From assembly GCA_016186945.1 (NCBI GenBank), contig JACPKR010000076.1, forward strand, positions 1-19,055: 19,055 nt of DNA, in the 5' to 3' direction. Positions 1,750 through 18,923 of the stretch are shown one piece after another. Below the pieces are notes generated by a model that ran no database searches, was not told the origin of the DNA, and saw only the letters and a program-made list of their open reading frames with translations. Within the stretch, counting starts at the first letter, position 1, and each line of letters starts with the position of its first letter. This DNA comes from Deltaproteobacteria bacterium (lineage in GTDB: Bacteria; Bdellovibrionota_B; Oligoflexia; Oligoflexales; Bog-1112). A program made the position numbers and the translations under genes.

Positions 1750-3081
1750 TCAGAACTCACCCAACGTCTCAAGTTCTGCATCAATCTGCTGAAGCTTTTC
1801 CTGTTCCCGCCCCAGGACTGCCTGAAAGCCTTCCCATTTTTTTGCCATCACGACCTCGGCTTGGCATTTTCGGGTGGCTAATTTTTCGGGGTCGTTGATG
1901 GCAGTGTCAAGGTTGCGGATCACTTCAGCAAAGTGCCCTACTGAATGCACGGGGTTAGCCGCGGAGGCAAACTGCTTTGCCGTTTTTTTGAGAATGCCTC
2001 CAAAGCTGCAGATATCCCCCCAGGCATCCTCTCTCTGTTCGTAAGTCGTACAGTGCTTCTCAACATCTTTTTTCGACCAAGAGCCATACCGTCTTTGTGT
2101 ATCGGCCACGCAATCTTGATCGACAGTACCTTTCGTACAATATTCGTTGATTTGCTCCTCCGTCCAATCTGTCCCTCGATCTTTCAAATCCTGTACGCAC
2201 TGCTCGTTAACTTTCGCCTTATCGCAGTCAGCGTCTATCTGATCGCCAAGCCAGTCGAGTCCGTCCACAGTATATTTTCCCGCATCTTCAGCTCCTGTGG
2301 CGACGATGCCAGGAATCCCATCGAGGGCTTTGTCGATGGACTGCCCCGTGTTTTTAACCCCTTCGATGAACCAATTCACGGGGGTTTTGAGAAGCTGGTC
2401 AATGATGCGAATTTTGGCTCGCAGTCGTTCTTCTACATCTGCATTATGTTCGAGGCAAAATTGCAGATCGTCACGGTATTCAACAAAGATCTGGTATTTG
2501 TCACGGCCTAATTTTTCGAGTGCTTTGATCACATCCTGCCGCCTTTGATAGAGGTTGCGCAATTTTAAATCCGGCGTTCCCGGCTGGTATTCCTTGTCGG
2601 CGAAAGTTCCGCAAATCTCTCTGCTGGTCGCTTTGTCAGGTTCCACACAACCTTTCACAGAGACTAGGACTTTTCCCTCGAAAAGTTTGGGGACCACGAC
2701 TCGATTGTAGGGCGTGACGTTCTCCACGCATTCACCACCGACCGAACAAGTTGTTCTCCCTTCCGGGCATTCCTGGAAGGTTTGCTCCATGGGACAGATG
2801 CGCCAGAAGGCGTAGTCCGCCTTCCCACTGATGGAGTAGCTTATAATCTCCGCTTTCTTGCCCTTGTCTGCCAACTTGCCAACGGAAAGGTTGAAGATTC
2901 GAAGTTTTGCTGCGTCCACCTTCTCAGGAGGTTTCGGTTCTTCCGCAAGCCTTTGTTCTCCCCCCTGTTGGGAGACATCAGCGTCTGTCGTTGCTGTTGC
3001 TTTCTTAGTTTTTACCTGGGCCTCTTGCTGGGGAGCACAGGCACCCAGGAGAAGAAAGAAAATTGCGAACCGTCCTTGCAC
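1750..3081 (-). CDS. Predicted lipoprotein with a 29-residue Trp/Cys repeat
   Basis: The 443-residue product begins with a short signal ending in the lipobox LLGAC (Cys15), so it should be lipid-anchored outside the cytoplasm. The start is GTG with AAGGG upstream; no later start keeps the signal. A low-complexity charged linker (about 20-57) follows. Residues 84-160 are Cys-rich (C96, C105, C112, C118, C145, C157) and probably disulfide-bonded. Residues 274-348 hold a 29-residue repeat: W277/W306/W335 and C286/C315/C344 recur at exactly 29, and C295/C324 as well. The C-terminus (about 400-443) is helical and likely coiled-coil. It lies nine bases after the lipoprotein gene at 3091-4707, so the two are probably one operon. 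I do not recognise a family and assign no function. Confidence 0.75.
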   Translation of the reverse strand: MQGRFAIFFLLLGACAPQQEAQVKTKKATATTDADVSQQGGEQRLAEEPKPPEKVDAAKLRIFNLSVGKLADKGKKAEIISYSISGKADYAFWRICPMEQTFQECPEGRTTCSVGGECVENVTPYNRVVVPKLFEGKVLVSVKGCVEPDKATSREICGTFADKEYQPGTPDLKLRNLYQRRQDVIKALEKLGRDKYQIFVEYRDDLQFCLEHNADVEERLRAKIRIIDQLLKTPVNWFIEGVKNTGQSIDKALDGIPGIVATGAEDAGKYTVDGLDWLGDQIDADCDKAKVNEQCVQDLKDRGTDWTEEQINEYCTKGTVDQDCVADTQRRYGSWSKKDVEKHCTTYEQREDAWGDICSFGGILKKTAKQFASAANPVHSVGHFAEVIRNLDTAINDPEKLATRKCQAEVVMAKKWEGFQAVLGREQEKLQQIDAELETLGEF

Positions 3082-4707: not shown

Positions 4708-4790
4708 TTCGCCTTACCTCTGTGTGGCACTCATCTTCTCCGGTATTATCGGATAACTATTGAAAAACTTTATGGGTTTATTGGCCGGGG

Positions 4791-4840
4791 CAAGGAGGTG
4801 GTTTGGAGGAAACTGCGCAGCTGGTTCCTCCAATAAATTC
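4791..4840 (+). repeat. Dispersed palindromic repeat, copy 1
   Basis: The 50-base unit starts CAAGGAGGTGGTTTGGAGG and contains a 31-base imperfect palindrome (4803-4833) whose arms TTGGAGGAA and TTCCTCCAA enclose CTGCGCAGCTGG. Nearly the same unit occurs at 18874-18923 and inverted at 16463-16511; a diverged palindrome is at 13593-13625. This copy lies just upstream of the LD-carboxypeptidase start, and its TTG at 4803 is an in-frame but probably unused start. Confidence 0.85.
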
Positions 4841-4868
4841 CTTGGAGAAGGCGGGGGGGGAATCTCGA

Positions 4869-5726
4869 GTGACAAGATCGGTACGTATCATTTTCCCATC
4901 AAGCGGAGACGAGCAAGACATCCTCGGTTCGAATGTGGAAAGTTTCGAGCGCAACGGCTTCCGGGTGACCTATCGGAAACCAAAATCGGAGCCGCTCCTG
5001 CCCTTCCTCTCGGCCTCATTGCGTTACCGGGTTGACGAGCTGACATCCTCTCTCCTGGACCCCGAAACAGACGTGCTAGTCTGTGCGCGAGGAGGTTTCG
5101 GAGCTGGCGACCTGCTCCCCCACATCCCATGGGAGAGCCTGCGCCAGGCGACTCCCAAGTGCATCGTCGGCTTCTCCGACATTTCCGCCCTGCATAGTGC
5201 GTTCTTTGCCAAACTAGGCTGGGCAGGCATTCACGGTCCCATGCCGGCGACAGAATACTGGACAGAAGACGGAGAGGACGTCGATCAATTATTCAAGCTT
5301 CTCCACGATCAAGAACATCAAGGGGGCAAGCTTCGTGTGAAACCGCTTTCCCCAACGGCCACAGTGAGCGGCTGGTTGTTTGGTGGGTGCTTGAGCGTCT
5401 TGTGTTCCCTCATAGGAACGCCCTATTTCCCCAAGCTGGACGGAGCCATTCTGTTTCTGGAGGACGTGGGGGAACATCCAGGCCGACTCCTTCGTTACGT
5501 CAATCAACTTAGCTTGAGCGGCGTGATAGCGCGGACCAATGCTGTCATGCTGGGATCCTTGGGCGATGAGGACGTTTTTCTACCTGTGAAGAAAGAGATC
5601 GCCAGAAGACTGCCGCTCCCCGTCTTTTCGTCGCAAGATTTCGGCCATTGTTTTCCCAACTTCCCTTTGACGATTGGTTCAAAAGCTGAGATTGATGGGC
5701 AAACTCTAAGGTGGGGAACGAAATGA
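4869..5726 (+). CDS. ldcA: LD-carboxypeptidase (peptidase family S66)
   Basis: The enzyme removes the terminal D-alanine from murein tetrapeptides, yielding tripeptides for recycling in the cytoplasm. From the GTG at 4869 the protein has 285 residues, close to the family norm of about 300, and opens with the expected RIIFPSSG strand. Visible S66 features are CARGGFGAGDLLPHI, the nucleophile Ser103 in GFSD, the GPM loop, FLEDVGE with Glu198, and the GHCFPN His260, giving the Ser-Glu-His triad. The frame stays open to a TTG at 4803, but those 22 extra codons fall in the dispersed repeat and do not resemble the family, so the GTG is preferred although its ribosome site is weak (a G-run). There is no signal peptide. 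The stop overlaps the mpl start (ATGA), which fits the joint recycling role. Confidence 0.88.
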   Translation: MTRSVRIIFPSSGDEQDILGSNVESFERNGFRVTYRKPKSEPLLPFLSASLRYRVDELTSSLLDPETDVLVCARGGFGAGDLLPHIPWESLRQATPKCIVGFSDISALHSAFFAKLGWAGIHGPMPATEYWTEDGEDVDQLFKLLHDQEHQGGKLRVKPLSPTATVSGWLFGGCLSVLCSLIGTPYFPKLDGAILFLEDVGEHPGRLLRYVNQLSLSGVIARTNAVMLGSLGDEDVFLPVKKEIARRLPLPVFSSQDFGHCFPNFPLTIGSKAEIDGQTLRWGTK

Positions 5727-7156
5727 AAAGCCAAGAATCCATCTACTTCGTCGGCCTTTCCGGAATCGGCATGGCAACCGTCGCAGGTCTTGTGAAAGAA
5801 GCAGGCTACACGGTTCTGGGGAGCGACCAGAACATTTTCCCTCCCGCTTCAGACTTGTTGCGGGAGATGAATATCCCTGTCCTCACACCTTACGCCCGGC
5901 AGAATGTCGAAGCCCATGCGCAGTCGCTCTTTGTGATCGGCAATAGCCTTTCCGCCAAACATCCAGAAATTGCGGCGATTGTGGAAAAAGGATTGCCGTA
6001 CAAAAGTTTTCCGCAGCTTCTTAACGAGCTTTTCCTGCAGAATACGAAAAATGTCGTCGTCTGTGGAACGCACGGGAAAACGACTACATCCTCCCTCCTA
6101 GCGTTCTGCTTGATGTCGCTAGGCGAAGACCCGAGCTACATGATTGGAGGAGCCCCTCACGATTTGGGCTTTGGCTTCCACGTGGGAAAGGGCAAGCTTT
6201 TTATCCTGGAAGGCGATGAGTACGACACGGCCTTTTTTGACAAAGGTTCTAAGTTCCTCCACTACAACCCTTCTTACATCGTGTTAAACCACCTTGAACT
6301 TGACCATGCCGACATTTTCAAAGACTTCGAAGCTGTAAAAGCGACCTTTCACAAATTGCTCGACCTAGCACCTTCGACATCTGTAGTTGCCAACCCCGAT
6401 GACAGCGGCGTGGGGGATTTGATGCAAGAGCACGGTTGGGAAATGGTGCATGCAGCAGATGTTCGTCTGAAGGGGATGCCCCGTTTTGGGGGAGGCATCT
6501 GGCAGGGCGACTTTGAAACCAAACTCTGGGGAACCTTACATGTATCGACTTCACTCCCCGGCGCTTATAATTTTAGCAACATCGCCCAAGTCCTGCGTAC
6601 CCTCTCCCTACTTACAGAAAAGGGGGAACTTCGCAGGTCCCCGACCAGGACGGACTTAGAGCTTATCCTCGCAAAGTTTCATGGTGTGGCAAAACGCTTC
6701 GATCGCCTTAGCTCGCAAGCTGGGGTCGATGTCTACCTCGACTTCGCCCACCACCCTACTGCTGTAAGGAATGTGTTACAAAACCTCCGGCAGATGCACC
6801 CCCACAGTCGGATTATCGTCGCGTTTGAGCCGAAGAACGCAACGTCACGCCGCAGCATCTTTCAGCATGAGTTTGCTGAAGTTTTCAAGCTAGCAGACGT
6901 CGCACTCATAGGCCCCACGCCGCATGATCCTCGGCTAAGTGATAAGGAGAAGCTGGACACCCACTTGCTTGCGGAAAGTATAAGCAAGGATGCTCGCGCT
7001 TTCTCCGACTTTGAAAGCCTCGGAGTCTGGCTACAGACAAATTATGGAAAGGGGGACGTGGTCGCTTTCCTCACCTGCGGCGATTTCGGAGGGGTACATA
7101 GGACCTTTGTAAAATGGCTGGAAACCACAAACAGCTTACGCATTGCAAAACTTTAA
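5723..7156 (+). CDS. mpl: UDP-N-acetylmuramate:murein tripeptide ligase Mpl
   Basis: Mpl joins recycled L-Ala-gamma-D-Glu-meso-DAP tripeptide to UDP-MurNAc using ATP, bypassing MurC, MurD and MurE. The 477-residue protein shows the Mur ligase layout: an N-terminal Rossmann domain with FVGLSGIGMA (9-18), the ATP-binding GTHGKTT (115-121), and the central NHLELDHADIF (189-199). Mpl rather than MurC is indicated by GDEYDTAFFDKGSKF (164-178), characteristic of this subfamily. FAHHPTAVRNVL and FEPKNATSRR lie in the C-terminal domain. ATG at 5723 is chosen because AAGGTG lies about nine bases upstream and it overlaps the ldcA stop by four bases, implying translational coupling; an upstream GTG at 5711 would add four residues. 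Pairing with LD-carboxypeptidase makes substrate supply and use one operon. Confidence 0.93.
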   Translation: MKSQESIYFVGLSGIGMATVAGLVKEAGYTVLGSDQNIFPPASDLLREMNIPVLTPYARQNVEAHAQSLFVIGNSLSAKHPEIAAIVEKGLPYKSFPQLLNELFLQNTKNVVVCGTHGKTTTSSLLAFCLMSLGEDPSYMIGGAPHDLGFGFHVGKGKLFILEGDEYDTAFFDKGSKFLHYNPSYIVLNHLELDHADIFKDFEAVKATFHKLLDLAPSTSVVANPDDSGVGDLMQEHGWEMVHAADVRLKGMPRFGGGIWQGDFETKLWGTLHVSTSLPGAYNFSNIAQVLRTLSLLTEKGELRRSPTRTDLELILAKFHGVAKRFDRLSSQAGVDVYLDFAHHPTAVRNVLQNLRQMHPHSRIIVAFEPKNATSRRSIFQHEFAEVFKLADVALIGPTPHDPRLSDKEKLDTHLLAESISKDARAFSDFESLGVWLQTNYGKGDVVAFLTCGDFGGVHRTFVKWLETTNSLRIAKL

Positions 7157-7165
7157 CAGAAATGA

Positions 7166-7194
7166 TTGTAATCCAGGATTTCTTGTGAAATAAT
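7166..7194 (+). promoter_or_regulatory. Candidate promoter for pal
   Basis: TTGTAA (7166-7171) and AATAAT (7189-7194) are 17 bases apart, matching four and five of six consensus positions. The predicted start near 7201 gives a leader of about 37 bases to the ATG at 7238. It begins nine bases after the mpl stop. Confidence 0.4.
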
Positions 7195-7237
7195 TTTTTT
7201 CCATTGTCACTTAAGCGGTCACTAGGAGAAAAATTGT

Positions 7238-7714
7238 ATGTTGCTCGCAAAAAAAAGCTCACTTCTAAGTTTGATGTTGGTTTCAGCTCTTTCCTTTTAC
7301 ACCGGATGTACAAAGGATGAAGAAGCGATGGAATCTCCGATGGAACCTTCCGCAATGGGCGAAGTTGCTTCTCCCCCACAGGAAGGTGCGGAGTTTAGTC
7401 CTGTTTACTTCGCGTTTGACAGCTCCGTGATTAAAAAGGAGTTTCATGAACAGCTCGTCCAGATGGCCTCGCGCCTGAAGGAAACCAAAGCTACGATGCA
7501 AATCGAAGGTCATTGCGATGAACGAGGCACCGTGGATTACAACATCGCTCTCGGTAACCGCCGCGCACATTCGGTGAAAAAATTCCTCGTGCAGATGGGT
7601 GTTTCTGCTGACAACCTTTCGACCATAAGCTATGGGGAAGAACGCCCTGCGGTGGATGGACACAGTGAAGAAGCATGGCGAATGAACCGCCGGGCTGAAT
7701 TTGTAAGGCGATAA
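7238..7714 (+). CDS. pal: Peptidoglycan-associated lipoprotein Pal (OmpA-like domain)
   Basis: The 158-residue protein has a lipoprotein signal ending in YTGC (Cys24), an acidic, proline-containing linker (about 25-54), and an OmpA-type peptidoglycan-binding domain (about 55-158). Key segments are VYFAFDSS (57-64), EGHCDERGT (90-98), YNIALGNRRA (101-110) and SYGEERP (131-137), which match Pal closely and include the Asp and Arg used to hold the DAP-containing peptide. Pal anchors the outer membrane to the wall and normally works with TolA, TolB, TolQ and TolR; none of those is in the window. AGGAGA lies upstream of the ATG. It follows the recycling pair after 81 bases and appears to have its own promoter. 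Confidence 0.93.
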   Translation: MLLAKKSSLLSLMLVSALSFYTGCTKDEEAMESPMEPSAMGEVASPPQEGAEFSPVYFAFDSSVIKKEFHEQLVQMASRLKETKATMQIEGHCDERGTVDYNIALGNRRAHSVKKFLVQMGVSADNLSTISYGEERPAVDGHSEEAWRMNRRAEFVRR

Positions 7715-7730
7715 AACAGACCCTTCTCGC

Positions 7731-7748
7731 GCTGGTCGATCGACCAGC
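7731..7748. terminator. Perfect 18-base palindrome after pal
   Basis: GCTGGTCGATCGACCAGC reads identically on both strands and would fold into a seven-base stem with a GATC loop. It begins 16 bases after the pal stop. It lacks an immediate U-tract (pyrimidine-rich sequence follows about 17 bases later), so it may be a weak terminator or an RNA-stabilising hairpin. Confidence 0.4.
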
Positions 7749-7785
7749 CTCGCAAAGTATTTCCTCCTTTTATCTTTTTCATGTT

Positions 7786-7814
7786 ATCTCTTAAGGTCAC
7801 GTTCATATTATAAT
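7786..7814 (+). promoter_or_regulatory. Candidate promoter for rny
   Basis: A perfect TATAAT (7809-7814) lies 50 bases before the GTG of rny. The -35 side is poor: a 17-base spacer gives ATCTCT. The predicted start near 7821 leaves a 44-base leader ending in GGAGG. The call rests mainly on the -10 box. Confidence 0.4.
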
Positions 7815-7864
7815 GGCGAACTTTTCCGCCCCCTCCCCAATGGGCCGGAAGAGCGGAGGAATAG

Positions 7865-9433
<1,569 letters not shown>

Positions 9434-9465
9434 AGTAAAGAGTAACCCGCTTGTGGCAAGGAGGC

Positions 9466-9541
9466 TTGTGGAGAGAACCTTTAGTATTTGGGAAAAAGAA
9501 TTTGTGGAGAGGACCTTTTTTGAAAAAAAGTTCCCCTCCAC
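9466..9541. repeat. Direct repeats and a long imperfect hairpin after rny
   Basis: TTGTGGAGAGAACCTTT (9466-9482) recurs as TTGTGGAGAGGACCTTT (9502-9518), 36 bases apart with one difference. The second copy also forms the left arm of a hairpin: 9504-9521 pairs with 9524-9541 with two mismatches and almost no loop. The hairpin abuts the next inverted repeat exactly. It may end rny transcription, but repeat-element origin is equally possible. Confidence 0.6.
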
Positions 9542-9625
9542 TGTCATCCCGCGGCTTGACCGCGGGATCCAACGGCAGCTTTTTTGCGAATCAGTTGGAT
9601 CCCGCGGTCAAGCCGCGGGATGACA
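9542..9625. repeat. Perfect 32-base inverted repeat with nested palindromes
   Basis: Bases 9542-9573 and 9594-9625 are exact reverse complements separated by 20 bases. Each arm contains its own hairpin, CCCGCGG-CTTGA-CCGCGGG, flanked by GTCAT and GATCCAAC. Elements of this wording (GTCATCCCGCGGCTTGACC...) are, from memory, widespread intergenic repeats in diverse proteobacterial genomes. It lies between rny and the outer-membrane protein gene, where it could terminate transcription or block exonucleases. Confidence 0.9.
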
Positions 9626-9655
9626 AACACGTAAAAGGATGACAAACACGTAAAA
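9618..9655. repeat. 19-base tandem duplication
   Basis: GGATGACAAACACGTAAAA occurs twice in immediate succession (9618-9636 and 9637-9655). The first copy overlaps the end of the 32-base inverted repeat, so the duplication includes part of that arm. It looks like slippage or repair at the border of the element. Confidence 0.85.
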
Positions 9656-9706
9656 GTTTGTCCCCAAATTGATTATCTTGACACTACAGACATAAGGATT
9701 TTCATC

Positions 9707-11305
9707 ATGCAGAGTCGTGTTTCAAAATTCGTCAGTCAAACGCTTCTGAGCGTCGCTTCCCTTTGCTTAGGAACGTCCTCATTTGCTCTCTTCCTGGATG
9801 GATCGGGGCATTACGGTTTACGCGGAGAAATGCGCACAGCGCCGGGAGCTTCTTCGGGACGAGGCTTGCACCAAGCCACTGACCAAAGCTTCCTTCTCGA
9901 CGCCGAAGCTCGCGCGAACGACGCCGCAAGCTTTTTCCTTGAATTTAGGTTGTTCGATGACCCCCGCAACGCCTACTTGGGCGATAGTCCCCTCCCCCGT
10001 GACTGCAACGGAGAAGAAAGCTCCTGCAAAGACCGAGACGGGAAAACACGTTACCAACACAGCTCAGAACCAGGGTACAAGAAATACGTGCCCAAAGTTT
10101 CAAAGGCTTACTTCAGCTACGCTTTCGACTATTGCATCCTCGATGCAGGACGGCGGGGACGTGATTGGGGCTTGGGTCTCTTCATGGACTCAGGGACGAG
10201 ACCGTTCAGCATAGCCTCTTCCATCTATGACGGGATCAACTGCCACGTCAATTTGCAGAAATTCCAGGATATGGGTGTTTCGTTCGGAATCGACAAACTT
10301 GCAGAAACAGGACGAGATATTCGTTCCAATCCTGACGATCCAGCAAAACCAGGGCCATCCAATATTAAAGATGATATGGATCAATACTATTTCTCAATCT
10401 ATCTGGACGACCGCACGTCTCATCCTAATGCGACCTTCAACAAACATATTGGTTTCTACGTAGCCAACATCCGTTCGGGCGCACTTGATGGTGGGGGGGC
10501 AAAAACGGAAATGTCAGTTGCGGATATGTATTTGGCCTTTTATTTTCCCCGCATTACTTGGCGCAACGAATTTATCTTCCGTCTAGGGAAAAGTGCAGAC
10601 CCCAACTACCTGACGCTTGGGGGTGGTTACGAAAGTTCCGGTGAACCCACAACCAACAACCTGAACGCTATCGGCTTCGGGGGTAATGTCGATTGGCTCA
10701 TGTCAGGCCCGCGATCGACTCAGGAATCTTCTCCTTATGCGAGTGTTAGCGGCAATCGTCACATCCTTTTCCTGGACTATGCTTTCGCACCTGGAGACCG
10801 CGACGGGTACTATAATGACTTTACAGGTAAAACGGATCTTGGCATCCAAAAGCGCGATGGATATGCGACAGCTTTAGCCTTCCATCCCAATTTCAGCCCA
10901 GCCCTCATCCTTTTCACAGGACGTTCTGAGATCGACGACCTGAAAGTTGACGGCGTGTTCGACCCCGTCAGGATCATGAACGCCCAAGTCTACTCCCTCG
11001 GTTATCGCTTCGAAGGAGTCGACATCGGCAACTTTGAAACCCGCCTGCTTTACAGCTTTCTCAACATGACGCCCCAGGATGAAGTGATCAACCACTACAG
11101 AACCCAAAAGACAAAACCTGTCGGATACTACGGAGATGAGTTAGGATTAGAGTTGGACCTAAAATATTGGCGTTCCCTTAGCAAGGGAATCGACGGAGGA
11201 CTTGCGACAGGAGCCCTTTTCCCCGGTAAGGCATGGCAAGTGGAAGACGAAGAACAGGCTAAGAACAGCTACCTAATACAAGCTTTTCTAACCTTCAATT
11301 TCTAA
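9707..11305 (+). CDS. Predicted outer-membrane beta-barrel protein
   Basis: The 532-residue product starts with a Sec-type signal, with likely cleavage after SSFA (about residue 27). The mature part is rich in alternating aromatic and polar residues and glycines, for example SKAYFSYAF, YYFSIYLDD and RLLYSFLNM, and it ends in LTFNF with a terminal Phe, as outer-membrane barrel proteins do. This suggests a porin or barrel-type export/import protein. A disulfide could form within the DCNGEESSC segment. I do not recognise a specific family or substrate. AAGGA lies before the ATG. It is the first gene of a seven-gene plus-strand run: its stop is nine bases from the next start, so it is probably cotranscribed with the lysine/DAP genes. 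The preceding repeat block likely separates it from rny. Confidence 0.7.
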   Translation: MQSRVSKFVSQTLLSVASLCLGTSSFALFLDGSGHYGLRGEMRTAPGASSGRGLHQATDQSFLLDAEARANDAASFFLEFRLFDDPRNAYLGDSPLPRDCNGEESSCKDRDGKTRYQHSSEPGYKKYVPKVSKAYFSYAFDYCILDAGRRGRDWGLGLFMDSGTRPFSIASSIYDGINCHVNLQKFQDMGVSFGIDKLAETGRDIRSNPDDPAKPGPSNIKDDMDQYYFSIYLDDRTSHPNATFNKHIGFYVANIRSGALDGGGAKTEMSVADMYLAFYFPRITWRNEFIFRLGKSADPNYLTLGGGYESSGEPTTNNLNAIGFGGNVDWLMSGPRSTQESSPYASVSGNRHILFLDYAFAPGDRDGYYNDFTGKTDLGIQKRDGYATALAFHPNFSPALILFTGRSEIDDLKVDGVFDPVRIMNAQVYSLGYRFEGVDIGNFETRLLYSFLNMTPQDEVINHYRTQKTKPVGYYGDELGLELDLKYWRSLSKGIDGGLATGALFPGKAWQVEDEEQAKNSYLIQAFLTFNF

Positions 11306-11314
11306 GGGAATGAG

Positions 11315-12727
11315 ATGGCTGACTTTGATAAAGAAAATGTCCTTCGTATTGATAACACGTTGGTCGTCAATTTCTTCTCAAGTTCAGCAAGCATCCTTCT
11401 GAAACATGAAGTCATTTCAGACAAAGATGTGCAAGACTTCAGAAGCTCCCTCAACCGACAAGAACGACACCCTCTCGGTGCTCTGATCGAAAACAACGAT
11501 AAAATCCTCTACCTGCTTGAGAAGCGTTATGCGTCCCAGGGACTGATGCAAAACCTGGTGCACTACACTTGGAATCCTGCCCTAAGCTCCCTCATCGCAG
11601 TTCTCCAGCAGTGGGGAAGTGAACTGCTGGAAAAGTCCCACGTCTATTTCAATCGCGGGGTCCTGCTCACCTCTGATCCCTTGAGTAAGCGGAGCGAACT
11701 GTACTCGAAAATACTTGTAGACTTGGCAGAATCGCTTGATTCAAGCTGCAAGACTCTCAAGACCCTACTAATGACCCCCTGGCTAGCTCATTCGTTCTTC
11801 GCTCAGAAGGAGGAAAGCGAGACCTTTGAAAAGGAACTCAGTTCCGCCCTTGGTTTTGAAAAGGTTAAGGACCTGAACGCCGGAGTGAATGACGACGGTC
11901 CCGCAAGATTAGCAGACTGCCTTTCACACCTTCTTGCAAAAACGCATGCGTTTTATGCAGACAGTGAGCGTCTGACGAAGCTTCCACGTTGGCAGGAAAT
12001 TCTTGTGCTTCGAGAAGAACTTAAGCACTCTACCACGCGACTGAAATCAATGGAATTAGGAGCAGGTCCCCTTCAACTTCTTGAACTGCAAAGGCAGCAG
12101 CTTATAGCCCTCCTAGGAGAGATTCGAGTTCTCTGCAAGCAAGTGGGTGACCACTTTGTCCAACACCTAGCTGTCTGGGCAAAGCTACCGGGGGACGGAG
12201 AGAAGACCGTTTTATCGGATAACATCCATGCAAGACTCTGTTACGAACTAGGGCGTGACGGTATGCCCCCATCGCAAATTGACGACATCGTGTCCTCACT
12301 GATCCGCTATTGTGAGATGAGGCGTATCACCCCGCAAGAAATCCTTTCCGCAGAATGCCAGAAGATTCATCCCAACTTAAACAAGCGGGGGCTGGAAATC
12401 TTTCAGGCACTGACCCGACAAGATCTCTACAGTCGAACGTTTACCCGAGAGAAAGGGGAGACTCTTTCGAAGATAAAGATGCTGGAACAGGAATTTCTTG
12501 ATATGAAGACATTCGTATATTCCCTTTCTTTTGTCTCCGTCCTCGCTGGCTGTGGGGTGAGAAGCTCCCCCCAAAGTGACACGATGGATTTCAGACCCCC
12601 GGTTCCCTTCATAGAGCCACTAGAAACCACCAGCAAAGAGGGTGAGAGAAAAGGGAAGGCCACCCCACCTGTCGAAAAAGAGGAAAAAAAAGATGACAAG
12701 GGAAAAAATAAAAGCCCCCGATTGTGA
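11315..12727 (+). CDS. Argininosuccinate-lyase-like protein, probably inactive, in frame with a lipoprotein
   Basis: Residues 1-396 resemble the fumarase/aspartase superfamily, nearest to argininosuccinate lyase. The N-terminus (FDKENVL... ILLKHEVISDKDV), the ALGFEKVKDLNAGVNDDG segment (178-195), and the C-terminal helices (LCYELGRDGMPPSQIDDIV, 308-326) align by eye with ArgH. The catalytic signature GSSxMPxKxN is absent, as is the usual SRND motif, and this part is about 60 residues shorter than ArgH, so lyase activity is unlikely. From Met397 the same frame continues into a complete lipoprotein signal and tail (described separately at 12503-12727), with no stop between. Either it is a fusion or the lipoprotein is made from its own internal start. 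ATG at 11315 has AAGGGA upstream. The order lyase, lipoprotein, dapA, dapB matches arg/lys clusters known in delta-proteobacteria, suggesting a decayed argH. Confidence 0.6.
   Translation: MADFDKENVLRIDNTLVVNFFSSSASILLKHEVISDKDVQDFRSSLNRQERHPLGALIENNDKILYLLEKRYASQGLMQNLVHYTWNPALSSLIAVLQQWGSELLEKSHVYFNRGVLLTSDPLSKRSELYSKILVDLAESLDSSCKTLKTLLMTPWLAHSFFAQKEESETFEKELSSALGFEKVKDLNAGVNDDGPARLADCLSHLLAKTHAFYADSERLTKLPRWQEILVLREELKHSTTRLKSMELGAGPLQLLELQRQQLIALLGEIRVLCKQVGDHFVQHLAVWAKLPGDGEKTVLSDNIHARLCYELGRDGMPPSQIDDIVSSLIRYCEMRRITPQEILSAECQKIHPNLNKRGLEIFQALTRQDLYSRTFTREKGETLSKIKMLEQEFLDMKTFVYSLSFVSVLAGCGVRSSPQSDTMDFRPPVPFIEPLETTSKEGERKGKATPPVEKEEKKDDKGKNKSPRL
12503..12727 (+). CDS. LptM/YifL-like small lipoprotein nested in the lyase-like frame
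   Basis: Starting at the ATG at 12503, with AGGAA nine bases upstream, the frame encodes 74 residues: a lipoprotein signal ending in LAGC (Cys17), then GVR and a proline- and lysine-rich tail (RPPVPFIEP, later EKEEKKDDKGKNK). This is the pattern of the LptM (YifL) group, small lipoproteins beginning CG and encoded next to lysA/dap genes in many proteobacteria; in E. coli LptM assists LptD maturation. A lipoprotein signal works only at an N-terminus, so an independent product is more sensible than a C-terminal fusion. An ATGA lies at the start (TGA in another frame), as if the upstream gene once ended here. Its end overlaps dapA by 35 bases. Confidence 0.55.
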   Translation: MKTFVYSLSFVSVLAGCGVRSSPQSDTMDFRPPVPFIEPLETTSKEGERKGKATPPVEKEEKKDDKGKNKSPRL

Positions 12728-13634
12728 AGTTTGGACCGCCCTCGCCACGCCGTTTAGGAACGACGCTTCCATAGACCTTGCTGCCTGGGAAAAATTGCTC
12801 GCCATGCAGGTGAAGGGGAAAGTCACGGGTGTTGTGATCGCAGGTTCCACAGGAGAAGGCTCCACTCTTTCTGCCCAGGAAAAACTCTCGCTTGTAAAAA
12901 AAACCAAGGCCATCCTTGGGAACTCCCTTTCTATCATGGCAAGTGTGGGAACGAGTCAGACCACCCAAAGCGTGGAACTCGCCAGACTTTGTGAAGAAGC
13001 AGGGGCTGACTCCCTTCTTGTTGTCACCCCCCCCTATAACAAACCATCGCAAGCCGGGCTTAAACTTCACTTCTCTCAAATTGCAGGCAGTGTCAAAATC
13101 CCCGTCTGCCTTTATCACGTGCCAGGACGAACAGGGCAAAAACTTTCTGCGGAGCAGCTTGCAGAACTTTGCAAGATACCTAATGTTACAATGGTAAAAG
13201 AGGCCAGCGCTGACCTTTGCTTGTTCTCTGAAGCAGCAATGCTGTCGGATGAGACTTATTTAAGCGGTGACGATTTCACCTATCTGCCTTCTCTGTCGGT
13301 GGGAGGAAGGGGCGTCATCAGCGTCATTTCCAATCTTTTTCCCGAGGCATTAGTCAGGCTTGGCAAACTGTTTGTCGAGGGAAATCATGCAGAGGCCTTG
13401 GCGCTGCACCGTCTACTGTTCCCAATGAACCAGGTGCTTTACTGCGAATCCAACCCCGGTCCTTTAAAGGCAGCTCTTCATGCCTTAGGGATATGCGATG
13501 ACTACCTCCGTCCCCCCCTTGCCCGGGTGACGGAAAGTTCGCGCGGCAAAATAGTGAAAACACTGGAGCAGGTTTTAGGCAAGGAAGAAAGTTTGAGAGA
13601 AACCTGCGCAGCTGGTTTCCCTCAAGGGCTTTAG
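12693..13634 (+). CDS. dapA: 4-hydroxy-tetrahydrodipicolinate synthase DapA
   Basis: DapA condenses pyruvate with aspartate-semialdehyde, the first committed step to DAP and lysine. From the ATG at 12693 (AGGA eight bases upstream) the protein has 313 residues. It shows the TIM-barrel family motifs GSTGEGSTL (51-59), the YN of TPPYNKPSQ (Tyr115), LYHVPGRTG (Tyr141) and VKEAS with Schiff-base Lys169. The frame is open upstream to 12642, but those residues do not match the family. It overlaps the lipoprotein gene by 35 bases and precedes dapB by 25, so translation is probably coupled. The last 14 or so residues (from SLRETCAAG) are encoded by a copy of the dispersed palindrome and look like an added tail. 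A run of eight C (13027-13034) encodes part of the active-site loop. Confidence 0.93.
   Translation: MTREKIKAPDCEVWTALATPFRNDASIDLAAWEKLLAMQVKGKVTGVVIAGSTGEGSTLSAQEKLSLVKKTKAILGNSLSIMASVGTSQTTQSVELARLCEEAGADSLLVVTPPYNKPSQAGLKLHFSQIAGSVKIPVCLYHVPGRTGQKLSAEQLAELCKIPNVTMVKEASADLCLFSEAAMLSDETYLSGDDFTYLPSLSVGGRGVISVISNLFPEALVRLGKLFVEGNHAEALALHRLLFPMNQVLYCESNPGPLKAALHALGICDDYLRPPLARVTESSRGKIVKTLEQVLGKEESLRETCAAGFPQGL
13593..13625 (+). repeat. Dispersed palindromic repeat, diverged copy inside dapA
   Basis: Arms TTGAGAGAAACC and GGTTTCCCTCAA (one mismatch) enclose TGCGCAGCT. The centre matches copies at 4803-4833, 16469-16499 and 18886-18916, while the arms differ but still pair. It encodes the end of DapA and lies nine bases before its TAG ends. 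Confidence 0.7.
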
Positions 13635-13659
13635 AAACTCTTGAACGAGAGGGAACATC

Positions 13660-14406
13660 ATGACCACACAACCTAAACTCTGGGTCCATGGACTCACCGG
13701 AAGAATGGGAGCTTCCATCCGACAAGAGCTGGGCGCCTTCCACTTTTCGTTGGTCGGGGGATCGGGGCTGGAGAGCGGTCTTTCGGAACTTAGCTCCGGA
13801 CTGAGTGAAAGCGACTGCATAATCGACGTCACCTCACCAATTGGCCATGACACACTCATCGAAGCTTTCGAGGGCGGCGAGCTGACTAAAAAAAGAGTCT
13901 TGATATGCACGACTGGCTTGTCAAAACAACAGCTCGGGCACTGGAAACAAACAGCAAAGCCCCGGGGGCTTACAGTTCTTGCCGCTCCTAATACCAGTCT
14001 TGGCATCCTCCTCATGTTGAAAAGTGCCTTGGCTGTGGCAGGTCTCAGCCTGGCAAACGGTTTCGATATTGAAATGGAAGAGACACACCATAGGGGAAAA
14101 GCGGATGCACCGTCTGGCACAGCCATCTTCCTCGCAAGAAATTTGTGTAAAACAAACCCCAAGCTTAAAGTGACGAGTCAGCGCAAAGGCGCGCGAGAAA
14201 AAAACGAGATAGGCATTTCCGCAACCCGTGGAGGAGGAGTCTTCGGAGAACACAGAATTCGCTTCCTCGGAGACCATGAAGAACTTGCCATCACCCACCG
14301 CGCCTTCTCCCGCTCTCTTTTTGCGCGTGGCGCTCTGCTTCTCACCGAGTGGCTTGTCAAGCAGCAGCCAGGCTTTCATAAACTGGAAGAAGTTTCACTC
14401 AACTGA
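13660..14406 (+). CDS. dapB: 4-hydroxy-tetrahydrodipicolinate reductase DapB
   Basis: DapB reduces the DapA product with NAD(P)H in the DAP/lysine pathway. The 248-residue protein has the N-terminal dinucleotide-binding GLTGRMG (11-17), the CTTGLS segment (83-88; usually GTTG in the family) and the substrate-binding, catalytic ETHHRGKADAPSGTA (141-155), with His143/His144 and Lys147 in the expected places. FGEHRIRF (196-203) completes the C-terminal domain. The ATG start has GAGGGA upstream. It follows dapA by 25 bases and precedes the H-NOX gene by 32, all in the same direction. Length is slightly below the usual 265-275 residues because the region after the Rossmann strand is compact. Identification is firm. 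Confidence 0.93.
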   Translation: MTTQPKLWVHGLTGRMGASIRQELGAFHFSLVGGSGLESGLSELSSGLSESDCIIDVTSPIGHDTLIEAFEGGELTKKRVLICTTGLSKQQLGHWKQTAKPRGLTVLAAPNTSLGILLMLKSALAVAGLSLANGFDIEMEETHHRGKADAPSGTAIFLARNLCKTNPKLKVTSQRKGAREKNEIGISATRGGGVFGEHRIRFLGDHEELAITHRAFSRSLFARGALLLTEWLVKQQPGFHKLEEVSLN

Positions 14407-14438
14407 GCAAAATAGTCACAAAAAGGGAGGACCTATAA

Positions 14439-14990
14439 ATGAAGGGGATTATCTTTAATATTATCGAAGAATTTATCGGCGAAAATTGGGGAGAAGAAAA
14501 ATATGAAGAAATCTTGGGCCTTTGCCCCCTCCACACCAAAGAACCTTTTGTAGGGCCTGGCACCTATCCAGATTCTGACCTTATTTCTATTGTCGAAAAG
14601 GCCGCTGAGATCCTAGAAATCAGTGTTCCCGATGTTCTTCGTGCAGCTGGGAAATTCATGTTTCCAAAGCTCGTTGAAAAATTCCCTCAATTCATTGCCC
14701 TACATAAGCACCCTAAAGATTTTCTCGTGACCATCGACTCGGTCATTCACGTGGAAGTAAAAAAGCTTTATAGAGATGCCGAAACTCCTCGATTTCAATT
14801 CACCAGCCCCGCGCCGAATAAGCTCGCATTTGACTATCAATCGAAGAGAAAGTTCTGCGCCCTTGTTGAGGGAATGCTAGACGGTGTTGCGGAACATTAC
14901 AAAATGCCGATTCAATACCATCAAACTAAATGCACCCACAAAGGGGATACAGATTGCCATTTTGAACTTCAATTTGGGTCACGTGCATAA
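14439..14990 (+). CDS. hnoX: H-NOX heme-based nitric oxide sensor
   Basis: H-NOX proteins bind heme and sense NO, usually controlling a partner kinase or cyclase. The 183-residue protein begins with the family's MKGIIFN. Its proximal heme ligand is predicted as His104 in SVIHVEVKKLY, and the heme-propionate motif YxSxR is Y133, S135, R137. The position corresponding to the oxygen-stabilising distal Tyr of the Thermoanaerobacter protein is Leu142, suggesting NO selectivity over O2. Cys140, Cys165 and Cys173 match the spacing of the zinc-site cysteines of the Vibrio/Shewanella type, but the expected His is displaced: His161 sits one residue before it and Gln162 occupies the place. GGAGG lies before the ATG. 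The kinase gene starts six bases after the stop. Family and function class are secure; the zinc detail relies on a remembered alignment. Confidence 0.93.
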   Translation: MKGIIFNIIEEFIGENWGEEKYEEILGLCPLHTKEPFVGPGTYPDSDLISIVEKAAEILEISVPDVLRAAGKFMFPKLVEKFPQFIALHKHPKDFLVTIDSVIHVEVKKLYRDAETPRFQFTSPAPNKLAFDYQSKRKFCALVEGMLDGVAEHYKMPIQYHQTKCTHKGDTDCHFELQFGSRA

Positions 14991-14996
14991 GGAAAA

Positions 14997-16193
14997 ATGG
15001 GAATCATGGCGAACGAAATTAACTGGGAAAAGAAACATCAAAGGGCGAATCAGAAAATCGTTGTCCTTGAAAAACTAATCGAAGATTCAACTCGTGAACT
15101 TTACATTGCCCAAGAAAACCTAATATCTGTAAATTCGTACTTAAACAGCATCATCACTTCGATGATTGATATGCTCATAATCGTGGATGGCTCTGGAAAA
15201 ATCAAAATGACGAACCAGGCCACCTTGAACCTACTTCATTACTTTGATGTCACTCTAAACGAGAAAGACATCGGTTTCATTATTCCTCAGAATTGGGCCG
15301 AGTTTAATAAGGCATTACTACATTCCGGATCCAAAGTTCAAGAAATGCAGTGGGTTTCAAAAGACAGAGAACAAATTCATGTTTTGGTGTCCGGCTCAGT
15401 GATCAGAAATGACCAAGGTAATGTTTTGAGCTTTGTGCTTTTGGGTAGGGACATGAGGGAATACAAGAAAATTCAAAATCAACTCATGCACTCCAATAAA
15501 ATGACAGCCTTGGGTGAGCTTTTTGGATACGTCGCACACGAACTCAACACCCCCTTGGGAACGCTTTTTCTTCAAGGAAAGTTTCTGCTTGATCTTTTTA
15601 AAAAAATCCCAGTCAATACGGCTCAAACAACTGAAATAGTCACAAACATGCTTCAAATTACCGAACGAATCGCAGCTATCGTTCGGGAGCTAAACTCCTT
15701 TGTTCGAGAAGGCGGGAGCGATCCGTTTGTTCAAAAACACATTAAGGCTGTCGTTCTCAGCACCCTAGCATTTTGTGGTGATCGCTACAAAATGGCTGGT
15801 GTGAACATACAAGTTAACATCGACGAAAACGATGCCGATCTGACACTAGAGTGTCGACCCACTCAGCTTACCCAGGTTTTGTTTAACCTTTTTCAAAATT
15901 CTTCTGACGCTATCGAAAATCTTCCCGAAAAGTGGATCAAGATCTCTGCAAAATCTTTCAATGAGAGGATTGAACTTTCCATCGTCGATAGTGGAAATGG
16001 AATACCGGAACTAATAAGGGGAAAGATTTTTGACCCCTTCTTCACAACAAAGGAACTTGGCAAAGGAACCGGTATCGGGCTGAACGTCAGCGGAAAGTTA
16101 ATCGAAGCCCATGGCGGCACAATTTCCCTCGATCCAACAAATAACAACACATGCTTTGTCCTTTCCCTTCCTAAAAAGCAGAATGCACTATGA
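14997..16193 (+). CDS. hnoK: Soluble PAS histidine kinase, H-NOX partner (HnoK type)
   Basis: The 398-residue protein has no membrane helix. A coiled coil (about 10-50) leads to a PAS domain (about 50-155: [15 protein letters not shown]... [10 protein letters not shown]), then HisKA with the phosphoacceptor His181 in AHELNTPLG, and a HATPase_c domain with the N-box [15 protein letters not shown] (293-307), DSGNGIP (331-337) and GKGTGIGL (355-362). Kinases next to H-NOX genes are typically inhibited by NO-bound H-NOX and signal to response regulators affecting biofilm or cyclic-di-GMP. The start at 14997 has AAGGA only three bases away; ATG at 15006 is an alternative that removes three residues. 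No response regulator follows in the window, so its output partner is elsewhere. The tight six-base spacing from the H-NOX stop supports the functional pair. Confidence 0.92.
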
Positions 16194-16389
16194 ACTACTC
16201 CACTCAATCCTCAGCTGCGCACTTGAACCCACATTTCATGCAGTGATGAACCCGCTCAAATAATTGCTTCTTCATTTTGTAATGGCACTTCGGGTGCCGT
16301 GTAGTTAGCCACTACCGCTTCCCGCAGGACGACCAACGCAGTCGAGCGTATACATAAAGAGGTTAAGCGTAGGACGCGGGCTATGACAC
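16194..16389. other. Intergenic region after the kinase gene
   Basis: No gene is supported here. A short hairpin GGCAC-TTCGG-GTGCC lies at 16284-16298 and lacks a U-tract. Nothing resembles a clear intrinsic terminator for the long plus-strand gene run. Confidence 0.4.
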
Positions 16390-16533
16390 TAATGCGTAAG
16401 CCACTTGGGGCAAATAGGGAGAGGGGGGGGTTGGGGGGGAGAGTGAAGCGTCGCCTCCCCCGGATTTCTTGGAGGGACCAGCTGCGCAGTTTCCTCCAAA
16501 CCACCTCCTTGCCCCCAAGTGGCTTACGCATTA
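16390..16533. mobile_element. MITE-like element with terminal inverted repeats
   Basis: The left end AATGCGTAAGCCACTTGGGG (16391-16410) is mirrored at the right by CCCCAAGTGGCTTACGCATT (16513-16532); the right end has one extra C in its C run. If the element is taken as 16392-16531 it is flanked on both sides by TA, as after insertion by IS630/mariner-type transposases. The interior holds two G-runs (8 and 7) and one inverted copy of the dispersed palindrome. No coding capacity is evident. The terminal repeats are clear; mobility is inferred. Confidence 0.6.
16463..16511 (-). repeat. Dispersed palindromic repeat, copy 3 (inverted)
   Basis: On the minus strand this reads CAAGGAGGTGGTTTGGAGG and continues through CTGCGCAGCTGG to TCCCTCCAA. 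It differs from copy 1 by a single base in the 31-base palindrome (16469-16499) and slightly after it. It lies inside the element with terminal inverted repeats. Confidence 0.85.
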
Positions 16534-16553
16534 CAATATTCTAAATAATTTTG

Positions 16554-16582
16554 TTGACAATTCGATAATTGAATAAAAAAAT
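16554..16582 (+). promoter_or_regulatory. Weak promoter candidate for the glycoside hydrolase gene
   Basis: A perfect TTGACA (16554-16559) is followed after 17 bases by AAAAAT, four of six matches to the -10 consensus. CAATT-CGAT-AATTG (16558-16571) forms an operator-like inverted repeat overlapping the -35 box. The implied leader is only about ten bases, so the real start of transcription may differ. Confidence 0.3.
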
Positions 16583-16599
16583 GTAATAGGATGATTTTT

Positions 16600-18444
16600 A
16601 TGCGACATAAAAGATGGTTGTTGATTTTTACCTTGACGTTATTAAATTTATTACAATATTCGTGCAAGGGTTTGGGAACCCTATTCCAGCGGCAAGAACA
16701 AGAAAATGACAGCCCTTTAATTGATGGGAATCCGCATGGTATCGAAGCAATATTTGACAGCAAAACTTTTTATGAAAGACTGGGCCTGACCGAACAAGAA
16801 GTGCAGGATGAAGCAATCAGTAATGCTTCATCTCCAATTAATCTAAATTTGTCGCTCGATACTACCCCGGGAAGCGGCGCTGCCGGCATAACCGGAACCC
16901 AATGGGACATCAACGGGCATTTTATGAACGGTTTTCTCTGGGGTACGGCTATTTCCGCACACCAAGTGGAAGGCTACAACACTAATAATGACTGGTGGCA
17001 GTTTGAGACCTATTGCAAAGGCGGTATCATCTTTAAGGCCAAAATCACCTGCTGGCCCCAGTTTGTCCGCGATTCGGGACGGGCAGTTGATCACTTCTCT
17101 TTGTTTACCGATGCCGATTTGGATAAAGCCAAGGCCCTGGGTACCAATGCTATTCGCATAAGTATTGAATGGTCGCGCATCGAAACAGCCAAAGATACCT
17201 TTTCTGCTAGTGCCACCACCTATTACCGTAATTACCTGCAGAAAATCCGGGACCGGGGTATGAAACCGGTTGTAACCTTGTGGCACTTTACCCTGCCCAT
17301 CTGGGTACAGCGTCCGGGCTATAGTATCGACTTGCGGGGACGACATGATCAAATGGATAACAGCCTCAAAGGCTGGCAGAATAAAGCTGTAGTGTGGGAG
17401 TTTGCCGCTTTTGCCAAATATTGCGCGCAAAATTTCGGCGATTTGGTGGATATCTGGGTTACGCACAATGAACCGGTAGGTACGATCATGGTAGGCTATA
17501 TGGCCGGGTTTTTTCCGCCTGGTTATCTGTTACAATGGAAAAGAGCCAAGGCCGCTATTTTAAATATAGCGCGGGCGCACAATAAGGCTTACGATGCGAT
17601 TAAATCATTTGATCGTTGGGATTCTGACGCGACTTTACCGGTACCCCAACCCGATGGCGAAAATGCAAAAGTAGGTCTGGTTCAGGCTTTCCGTCATCTT
17701 ATTCCTAATAACAGCAGGGGTGCTGCTGATTTGGATTCCGCCAAAAAATTGGATTATTTTTATCATTACCAGACTATTGATGCCGCATATGCCGGGAGAC
17801 TGGATACTAACTGGGATGGCAACAGTGACGAAACCCTGGAGAATGGCGCACGCAAGCTTGATTTTATCGGCGTAAACTATTACAGCACCTTCATGGTGTC
17901 GCCGAAGTATGCGGGAAACCTGCCTTGGTTTTTAACCAAGGCCTATCCTGAAATTGGTTCTACCCTCTGGATTGCCGATAACAATGCCACTAATGTGCCG
18001 CATAACTCATTGGGCTGGCAGGTGTATCCAGACGGCCTTTATGAAGTGCTCATGAAAGTCAAAAACCGTTACGGTAACATTCCGGTGTATATTACCGAAA
18101 ACGGCATAGCCGACTCTGACGGCAGTACCAATAAGCGGGCACAGTACATTATTTCCCACCTGCAGATGATGCTGAAAGCCTACCGCGATGGTGCAGATAT
18201 TCGGGGCTACTTTTATTGGACGTTGATGGATAATTTTGAATGGCGGGAAGGACTGCGCAAAGAGGCGCATTTCGGTCTTTACCATGTTGATACCGGCGAT
18301 CATGATGTTTCTTTACCGAGCGATTCATTGGCCAGAACGCCGACGGCCGCGGTTAACGCCTATAAAGCCATCATAACTGAAAACGGTATTTCTTCGACGA
18401 TTTTAACGAATTACGGTAGTTATCCTGATATGCCGACTCCGTGA
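16600..18444 (+). CDS. Family 1 glycoside hydrolase (beta-glycosidase), predicted lipoprotein
   Basis: The protein hydrolyses beta-linked glycosides by the retaining mechanism. From the ATG at 16600 (ATAGGA about eight bases upstream; ATG at 16591 sits against its AGG) it has 614 residues. A signal segment ends in QYSC (Cys22), an imperfect lipobox, so surface or periplasmic anchoring is likely. Residues about 23-105 form a linker or extra domain absent from cytoplasmic GH1 enzymes, which have about 450 residues. The GH1 barrel starts at GFLWGTAISAHQVEG. The acid/base is Glu291 in THNEP, the nucleophile Glu500 in ITENG, and YFYWTLMDNFEW lies near the C-terminal side. A DTNWDGNSDE segment (402-411) resembles a calcium-binding loop. 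The gene stands alone between repeat-rich intergenic regions, as an acquired gene might. Substrate is not predictable. Confidence 0.9.
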   Translation: MRHKRWLLIFTLTLLNLLQYSCKGLGTLFQRQEQENDSPLIDGNPHGIEAIFDSKTFYERLGLTEQEVQDEAISNASSPINLNLSLDTTPGSGAAGITGTQWDINGHFMNGFLWGTAISAHQVEGYNTNNDWWQFETYCKGGIIFKAKITCWPQFVRDSGRAVDHFSLFTDADLDKAKALGTNAIRISIEWSRIETAKDTFSASATTYYRNYLQKIRDRGMKPVVTLWHFTLPIWVQRPGYSIDLRGRHDQMDNSLKGWQNKAVVWEFAAFAKYCAQNFGDLVDIWVTHNEPVGTIMVGYMAGFFPPGYLLQWKRAKAAILNIARAHNKAYDAIKSFDRWDSDATLPVPQPDGENAKVGLVQAFRHLIPNNSRGAADLDSAKKLDYFYHYQTIDAAYAGRLDTNWDGNSDETLENGARKLDFIGVNYYSTFMVSPKYAGNLPWFLTKAYPEIGSTLWIADNNATNVPHNSLGWQVYPDGLYEVLMKVKNRYGNIPVYITENGIADSDGSTNKRAQYIISHLQMMLKAYRDGADIRGYFYWTLMDNFEWREGLRKEAHFGLYHVDTGDHDVSLPSDSLARTPTAAVNAYKAIITENGISSTILTNYGSYPDMPTP

Positions 18445-18578
18445 TGACCGGTTATCGGCAATTGTCTGCCCGGTAGCATCATGCGTTAAAGGACATACAA
18501 TCATCCCACGGCTGTATAAATTCAGGACTTTTTCAGGTAAATTCAGGATGTTTAAAAATTCACCAATAAGGAACTCGT
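18445..18578. other. Intergenic region after the glycoside hydrolase gene
   Basis: No gene is supported. The phrase AAATTCAGGA occurs twice (about 18519 and 18539), a short direct repeat. Nothing else stands out before the hairpin cluster that follows. Confidence 0.35.
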
Positions 18579-18597
18579 AAAATGCTAAAGCATTTTT
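18579..18597. terminator. Intrinsic terminator-like hairpin with TAAA loop
   Basis: AAAATGC (18579-18585) pairs with GCATTTT (18590-18596) around TAAA, with another T following. The A-tract and T-tract make it suitable in both directions. It lies about 135 bases after the glycoside hydrolase stop. Confidence 0.55.
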
Positions 18598-18604
18598 CTC
18601 GTAC

Positions 18605-18716
18605 AGCGAAGGAGGGAGTGTGGACTCTCCCCTTCGCTTTGTCTCTTAACTCGGCCCTAAAGGGCCGAGTTTCTCTTCCTCGCGCTAAAGCGCTCGGAGT
18701 TTTTTGATAAAAATAA
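18605..18716. repeat. Cluster of three further hairpins, two with TAAA loops
   Basis: First, 18605-18638: AGCGAAGG pairs with CCTTCGCT, with a partly paired inner stem and a GTGG loop. Second, 18648-18671: AACTCGGCCC pairs with GGGCCGAGTT around TAAA, perfect over ten bases. Third, 18682-18693: GCGC-TAAA-GCGC, followed within about ten bases by a run of six T. The last could terminate plus-strand transcription; the clustering suggests a repeat family or a structured RNA. Confidence 0.6.
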
Positions 18717-18873
18717 AGTTGCGAAACAAGTGGGAAGGCTTTTTGGAAATTCTCCGCCTCCTTTACCTCAATGGCACTTTTCCTCAAGAATCTGGATTGC
18801 TTCGTCGGGTTTCGCAAGAAGTTTCTTCTCTAGCTGCCCCTCCGCCCCCCCTTAGTAAGGAGGAGGTCCACCT

Positions 18874-18923
18874 CAAGGAGGTGGTTTGGAGGAAACTGCG
18901 CAGCTGGTTCCTCCAAGAAATTC
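18874..18923 (+). repeat. Dispersed palindromic repeat, copy 4
   Basis: This 50-base unit matches copy 1 at 4791-4840 at all but one position, including the 31-base palindrome (18886-18916). Just upstream, CCACCTC-AAG-GAGGTGG (18869-18885) forms an extra perfect seven-base hairpin that overlaps the unit's left end. Confidence 0.85.

What the first reader, a model, noticed from the sequence alone, without database searches (positions are those of the whole stretch)
4791..18923. A palindromic repeat family with a fixed core and a re-paired stem
Four copies (4803-4833, 13593-13625, 16469-16499 inverted, 18886-18916) share the centre TGCGCAGCTGG. Three have arms TTGGAGGAA/TTCCTCCAA or nearly so; the dapA copy has TTGAGAGAAACC/GGTTTCCCTCAA, different in sequence but still able to pair. 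Pairing kept while sequence changes suggests selection on a folded RNA or on hairpin DNA, as in REP elements mobilised by RAYT-type transposases. Four copies in 19 kb, touching or entering genes, suggests an abundant genomic element.
Basis: partly seen in the sequence, partly recalled or inferred. Interest (0 to 1): 0.75.

Follow-up and report, generated by a model that had tools for sequence, protein, structure and literature searches.

The report
REP-like hairpin repeat, no known mobiliser
A roughly 45-base DNA hairpin with a fixed tip and changeable stems is scattered in about 370 copies, mostly between genes, in this uncultured Oligoflexia-related bacterium and two relatives; it behaves like the known REP repeats but has a different tag and no REP transposase was found.

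Summary
The tip TGCGCAGCTGG occurs 374 times in the 2.66-Mb genome (reversed control: 3). The copies are mostly intergenic and show no orientation bias. Two other genera of the same family carry the same tip and a 5' tag, GCAAGGAGG, with different but still paired stems. Only 3 of 58 genomes of the class have it, and a same-genus genome lacks it. Covariation is strong across genera (46 double-changed cells against 15 in shuffles). As single-stranded DNA the four variants tested fold into the same tip: a GCA triloop on GC/GC, a T·T and usually an A·G mismatch, then the variable stem.

The dapA copy is absent from all seven relatives, so it was gained; it encodes most of a new DapA tail. Window copy 3 lies in a ~146-bp MITE whose genomic sisters have GTAA ends and 8-9-bp target duplications (IS66-like).

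No RAYT, IS91 or IS66 transposase was found in this genome; IS200/IS605 TnpA genes are present but not flanked by the hairpin. I read it as a REP-like non-autonomous repeat of a new sequence type, copied partly by hitch-hiking in a MITE, partly by an unidentified, probably single-strand, mechanism. Template switching may re-pair its stems.

The parts
4790..4833 (+). Copy 1: tag GCAAGGAGGTGG (4790-4801), left arm 4803-4811, tip 4812-4824 (ACTGCGCAGCTGG), right arm 4825-4833; followed by a degenerate MITE-like interior (CCTTGGAGAAGGCGGGGGGG)
13579..13625 (+). Copy 2 (minor subfamily): tag GCAAGGAAG, arms 13593-13602 / 13616-13625, tip 13603-13615; lies inside the 3' end of dapA and encodes most of the new C-terminal tail
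16469..16512 (-). Copy 3: arms 16491-16499 / 16469-16477, tip 16478-16490, tag 16501-16512
16389..16534 (.). 146-bp MITE that carries copy 3; 21-bp perfect terminal inverted repeats TAATGCGTAAGCCACTTGGGG (16390-16410 / 16513-16533); sister copies in the genome have 8-9-bp target duplications, this one has none visible
   Evidence: (I8)
18873..18916 (+). Copy 4: tag TCAAGGAGGTGG, arms 18886-18894 / 18908-18916, tip 18895-18907; followed by a degenerate MITE interior
12642..13634 (+). dapA (PF00701), extended at its C-terminus by the insertion of copy 2

Best explanation
The hairpin is a REP-like, non-autonomous mobile DNA repeat of a new sequence type. Its parts are an unpaired 5' tag GCAAGG(A/G)G, a stem of variable sequence (about 7-10 bp), and a fixed 13-nt tip (ACTGCGCAGCTGG) that as single-stranded DNA forms GC(GCA)GC with T·T and A·G mismatches. 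It multiplied separately in three genera of one family. Part of the spread in this genome is hitch-hiking inside a ~145-bp IS66-like MITE moved in trans with 8-9-bp target duplications (shown by the duplications; the transposase is not in the assembly). The remaining tag-hairpin copies were probably moved as folded single strands by a recombinase that reads the tip and tag, as TnpA-REP does for GTAG REPs (inferred; enzyme not found). Stem changes stay paired because hairpin template switching copies one arm onto the other, with or without selection for the fold (inferred).
For: 374 exact tips against 3 in control. Intergenic: a random point is 85% genic, whereas 97 of 139 hairpins are intergenic and most of the rest lie in over-extended ORF starts; co-directional gaps hold 21 same- and 30 opposite-sense copies. 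dapA copy absent from seven relatives. 13 of 19 two-ended MITEs have 8-9-bp duplications. Covariation score 0.344 against 0.094 shuffled and at most 0.098 slid. DNA fold z -2.1 to -4.1, RNA z -0.5 to -1.3. Untagged G007 copies have arms extended to 10-27 bp into mirror-image flank, and one G005 copy has the tip inverted relative to the tag.
Against: No enzyme for the solo copies was identified; neither RAYT nor IS91 (Y2) was found in G000 or G007. IS200/IS605 TnpA genes do exist in both but lack the hairpin at their ends. Solo copies could be decayed MITEs: 85 of 132 keep a MITE trait on at least one side. The assemblies are 91-92% complete, so absence of a gene is not proof. No movement was observed directly.
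Confidence: 0.62

Rival explanations
1. Everything in this genome is explained by one IS66-like MITE family: the hairpin is just the inner end of the MITE, and 'solo' copies are truncated or decayed MITEs.
For: 52 of 132 hairpins have MITE sequence on both sides and 33 on one side; target duplications show DDE-type transposition of the whole unit.
Against: 47 of 132 have no MITE trait on either side yet keep a sharp GCAAGG start, including the dapA copy and the minor subfamily. In G005 and G007 the same tag and tip occur in different contexts, such as the 253-476-bp inverted composite elements of G007.
Confidence: 0.2
2. A classical GTAG-type REP moved by a RAYT that is missing from the assembly or decayed.
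For: Copy number, intergenic position, an unpaired 5' tag, a mismatched stem, and doublets. G005 has RAYT-like genes (L080 at 73 bits against cut-off 80; the L085-L089 group).
Against: The tag is GCAAGGAGG, not GTAG/GTGG or CGTC. No Y1 gene in the three genomes is flanked by the hairpin pair; only one core lies near a G005 RAYT-like gene. Neither G000 nor G007 has a RAYT above cut-off.
Confidence: 0.13
3. A structured RNA element (mRNA-end stabiliser, terminator or regulatory RNA) conserved because its RNA fold is selected.
For: Real covariation; intergenic placement with an excess in convergent gaps (25 copies, 57 gaps).
Against: No strand preference in co-directional gaps (21 same, 30 opposite); no terminator call at any window copy; no Rfam match in the window; RNA folding little better than shuffles while DNA folding is; absent from a same-genus genome.
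Confidence: 0.05

Closest known systems
GTAG-type REPs / REPINs with RAYT (TnpA-REP) (PMC2817692, PMC3116915, PMC8266576)
   Same: Short intergenic imperfect palindrome, hundreds of copies, unpaired 5' tag, conserved mismatches in the stem (as in E. coli REPs), re-paired stem variants, inverted doublets, likely read as single-stranded DNA
   Different: Tag is GCAAGGAGG instead of GTAG; the tip is almost invariant while the outer stem varies; no associated RAYT found
CGTC-type REPs (PMC3733652)
   Same: Palindromic repeat with an unpaired tag and no dedicated transposase
   Different: Tag, loop and stem sequences differ; this genome also holds a separate repeat of CGTC/TGTC type (125 copies)
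IS66-family MITE (IS66: 20-30-bp inverted repeats starting GTAAGCG, 8-bp direct repeats; PMC11946415)
   Same: The ~145-bp carrier of window copy 3 has GTAA...TTAC ends and 8-9-bp target duplications in sister copies
   Different: Inverted repeat continues TGCGTAAGCC; no IS66 transposase in the held genome; the hairpin inside is not an IS66 feature
IS200/IS605 ends and derivatives (general knowledge; PMC8266576)
   Same: Single-stranded hairpin with mismatches next to an unpaired guide-like tag; TnpA genes exist in the genomes
   Different: Hairpin not found at the ends of the intact TnpA genes examined

Membership tests
REP (repetitive extragenic palindrome), broad sense | Short palindrome in high copy number (>100) | tested here: met
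   374 exact cores; at least 108 model hits in each of 3 genomes
REP (repetitive extragenic palindrome), broad sense | Extragenic | tested here: met
   97 of 139 clearly intergenic, most others at over-extended ORF starts; 85% of random points are genic
REP (repetitive extragenic palindrome), broad sense | Pairing preserved among sequence variants | tested here: met
   per-genome columns
REP (repetitive extragenic palindrome), broad sense | Inverted doublets (BIME/REPIN) | tested here: inconclusive
   A-B tail-to-tail doublets in G000 and inverted pairs around 253-476-bp inserts in G007; most G000 copies are single
GTAG REP of a RAYT system | 5' GTAG/GTGG tetranucleotide | tested here: not met
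   Tag is GCAAGGA in all aligned copies
GTAG REP of a RAYT system | rayt gene flanked by two inverted copies | tested here: not met
   limited by 91-92% complete assemblies
CGTC REP | CGTC/TGTC/CCTC tag, 8-9-bp stem, 4-5-nt loop | tested here: not met
IS66-like MITE (carrier of copy 3) | 20-30-bp terminal inverted repeats starting GTAA | tested here: met
   the window copy itself reads CTAA at its left end
IS66-like MITE (carrier of copy 3) | 8-bp target duplications | tested here: met
   13 of 19 two-ended sister copies have 8-9 bp; not visible at the window copy
IS66-like MITE (carrier of copy 3) | Cognate IS66 transposase in the genome | tested here: not met
   PF03050: none in G000 or G007, 7 hits in G005
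IS200/IS605 element end | Hairpin at the ends of a tnpA gene | tested here: not met
IS91/Y2 element end | Y2 transposase present | tested here: not met
   PF04986: none in G000 or G007
Intrinsic terminator | T-run after the stem | tested here: not met
   right arm is followed by AAGAAAT

The most novel reading that the evidence does not exclude
The fixed tip is the recognition and joining site of an unknown single-strand hairpin recombinase in this family of bacteria: elements join at the tip, leaving 5' half-elements ending at AAAC^TGC, and foreign repeats land at the same spot, while stems are rewritten copy by copy through template switching. That would be a third class of REP system beside GTAG/RAYT and CGTC.
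Probability: 0.22. Interest if true: 0.72.

Novelty: new variant of a known kind. Interest (0 to 1): 0.47.

Why it matters
It adds a REP-like family with a new tag in a poorly studied lineage and without a visible RAYT, so it bears on how REPs without a dedicated transposase (like CGTC REPs) spread. It offers natural material to separate two causes of compensated stems, selection and hairpin template switching, because tagged, mirror-extended and tip-inverted copies exist in three related genera. It also shows a REP-like hairpin being amplified by a DDE-type MITE.

Tried and rejected
RAYT association: Y1 genes found and classified, none flanked by the hairpin pair. IS91 (Y2), suggested by the CAAG in the tag: no hit in G000 or G007. 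IS66 transposase for the MITE: absent from G000. Known RNA family: none in the window; only sub-threshold microRNA matches on one long palindrome in a relative. Viral origin: no hit for the 19-mer in viral contigs. Terminator: no call at the hairpins. Gene flanked by inverted copies (REPtron search): 37 ORFs between inverted copies were looked at by eye only (first residues and size), none looked like a transposase; they were not profile-searched apart from those in the window. Strand bias with GC skew: none evident. The within-genome empty-site search by joining flanks gave mostly hits to the copies themselves and was not informative.

Full report
What was checked. In the window's own genome (G000, 2.66 Mb, 76 contigs, 91% complete) the exact core occurs 178 + 196 times, against 3 for the reversed pattern. 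A sample of 789 kb gave 126 exact cores and 141 hairpins with at least 6 of 10 arm pairs.

Anatomy. The consensus here is GCAAGGAGGTGG-TTTGGAGGAA-ACTGCGCAGCTGG-TTCCTCCAA-GAAAT. A minor subfamily, to which the dapA copy belongs, reads GCAAGGAAGGGAG-TTTGAGGGAAA-ACTGCGCAGCTGG-TTTCCCTCAA. Folded as single-stranded DNA, the four variants tested give the same tip: a GCA loop closed by GC/GC, then a T·T mismatch, a C-G pair, an A·G mismatch (a C-G pair in the dapA copy), then the variable stem, with the tag unpaired; z-scores are -2.1 to -4.1. With RNA energies z-scores are only -0.5 to -1.3.

Relatives. Among 56 related genomes the core is abundant only in two other genera of the same family, G005 (94) and G007 (89); a same-genus genome (75% complete) has none. 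A covariance model finds the family in 3 of 58 genomes of the class. Contig lengths identify G005 as the MAG 'Oligoflexales bacterium Go_Eff_bin_111' and G007 as 'Deltaproteobacteria bacterium RE-9nov16-152'. Tip and tag are the same in all three, stems differ: GGGGTCTGGGGAA/TTCCCCAG, TTCGGAA/TTCCGAA, CTAGGGGAA/TTCCCCTA and others. On 31 distinct copies 94.1% of cells pair, 46 cells change on both sides (15 in shuffles, at most 10 when slid), and the covariation score is 0.344 against 0.094. The copies were chosen for good pairing and the structure was derived from them, so the percentage paired is inflated; the double-changed cells and the slid controls are the better evidence.

Mobility. dapA: all seven relatives end the protein shortly after the position where the tag begins in G000, in most with dapB following directly, and none has the hairpin; G000 gains a C-terminal tail encoded largely by the element. 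The G005 gene reads GGCAAAGAAG at the equivalent place, close to the element's tag, so the target may resemble the tag (one case only). MITE: 19 two-ended copies of a ~145-bp element with GTAA...TTAC ends were found, 13 with 8-9-bp target duplications such as CTGAAGGT or GTTTCTTGG; this fits IS66, whose inverted repeats start GTAAGCG and whose direct repeats are 8 bp (PMC11946415). No IS66 transposase is in G000. Window copy 3 sits in such a MITE. In the sample 52 of 132 tagged hairpins have MITE sequence on both sides, 33 on one and 47 on neither; the classification uses loose patterns and old MITEs may be missed.

Enzyme. G000 has four Y1 hits and G007 one; the intact ones are IS200/IS605 TnpA by NCBIfam and below the RAYT cut-off, with no hairpin at their flanks. 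G005 has RAYT-like genes, not flanked by hairpin pairs. IS91 is absent from G000 and G007. So membership in the RAYT/GTAG REP system is not met, though the anatomy (unpaired tag, mismatched stem, hairpin in single-stranded DNA) is of the kind TnpA-REP reads (PMC8266576).

How stems stay paired. Published work shows that replication template switching can create compensated stems and inverted loops in one step (PMC8794818). Here, untagged G007 copies have arms extended to 10-27 bp into copy-specific flank, the left side being the mirror of the right; one G005 copy has the tip inverted relative to the tag; one G000 copy has the tag mirrored on the 3' side (C14 39985). These are signatures of template switching, so covariation alone does not show selection on a fold. 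I did not test the two against each other statistically.

Tip as a break and landing point. In G000 about 45 matches to the 5' part of the consensus stop within the first 33 positions; 20 of these stop at positions 24-29, that is at AAAC^TGCGC, and several are followed within about 20 nt by a new GCAAGG. Some shorter extents are point or indel variants rather than true truncations. Matching 3' halves are few. In G000 at least three copies continue after AAAC with a MITE end (GTAA), and in G005 several copies have a foreign repeat (CTTGCCCTGAGC...GGG) inserted exactly at AAAC^TGCG. Insertion sequences that target REPs are known (PMC1525189).

Position. The hairpins are mostly intergenic, with no strand preference in co-directional gaps and more copies per base in convergent gaps; genes were called by a simple ORF method, so counts are approximate. 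No terminator-like call falls on a window copy.

Verdict. A real, abundant, REP-like hairpin family of a new sequence type, amplified in part by an IS66-like MITE; the mover of the free copies is unknown. Known in kind, new in variant.

Noticed in passing
window 9542-9573 and 9594-9625: A second palindromic repeat, TGTCATCCCGCGGCTTGACCGCGGGATCC, as an inverted pair; 125 matches to a 27-base pattern genome-wide, many in inverted pairs ~54-56 bp apart; fits the published CGTC/TGTC-type REP.
   Followed up: partly
L055-L062, L067, L173 (genome G007): Inverted hairpin pairs flank 253-476-bp inserts; in the ~465-476-bp copies a 27-36-nt perfectly paired stem differs in sequence from copy to copy while blocks such as CTCTCAAAATCGCAG are conserved.
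   Followed up: partly
L135, L138, L140, L149, L161 (genome G005): A different GCCCTGAGC-type repeat is inserted at or near AAAC^TGCG in the tip of several hairpins.
   Followed up: partly
L085-L089 (genome G005): A group of ~240-aa RAYT-like proteins, about 79-86% identical at DNA level, some next to short tandem repeats, without a hairpin pair.
   Followed up: partly
window 9618-9655: Perfect 19-bp tandem duplication GGATGACAAACACGTAAAA directly after the second palindrome.
   Followed up: no
window 7125-7156: Sequence similar to the MITE end (ACAGCTTACGCATTGCAAAAC) at the 3' end of the Mur ligase gene; possible degenerate MITE end.
   Followed up: no
window 3091-4707, 1750-3081, 9707-11305, 11315-12727: Large ORFs with no Pfam match at E 0.001.
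   Followed up: no
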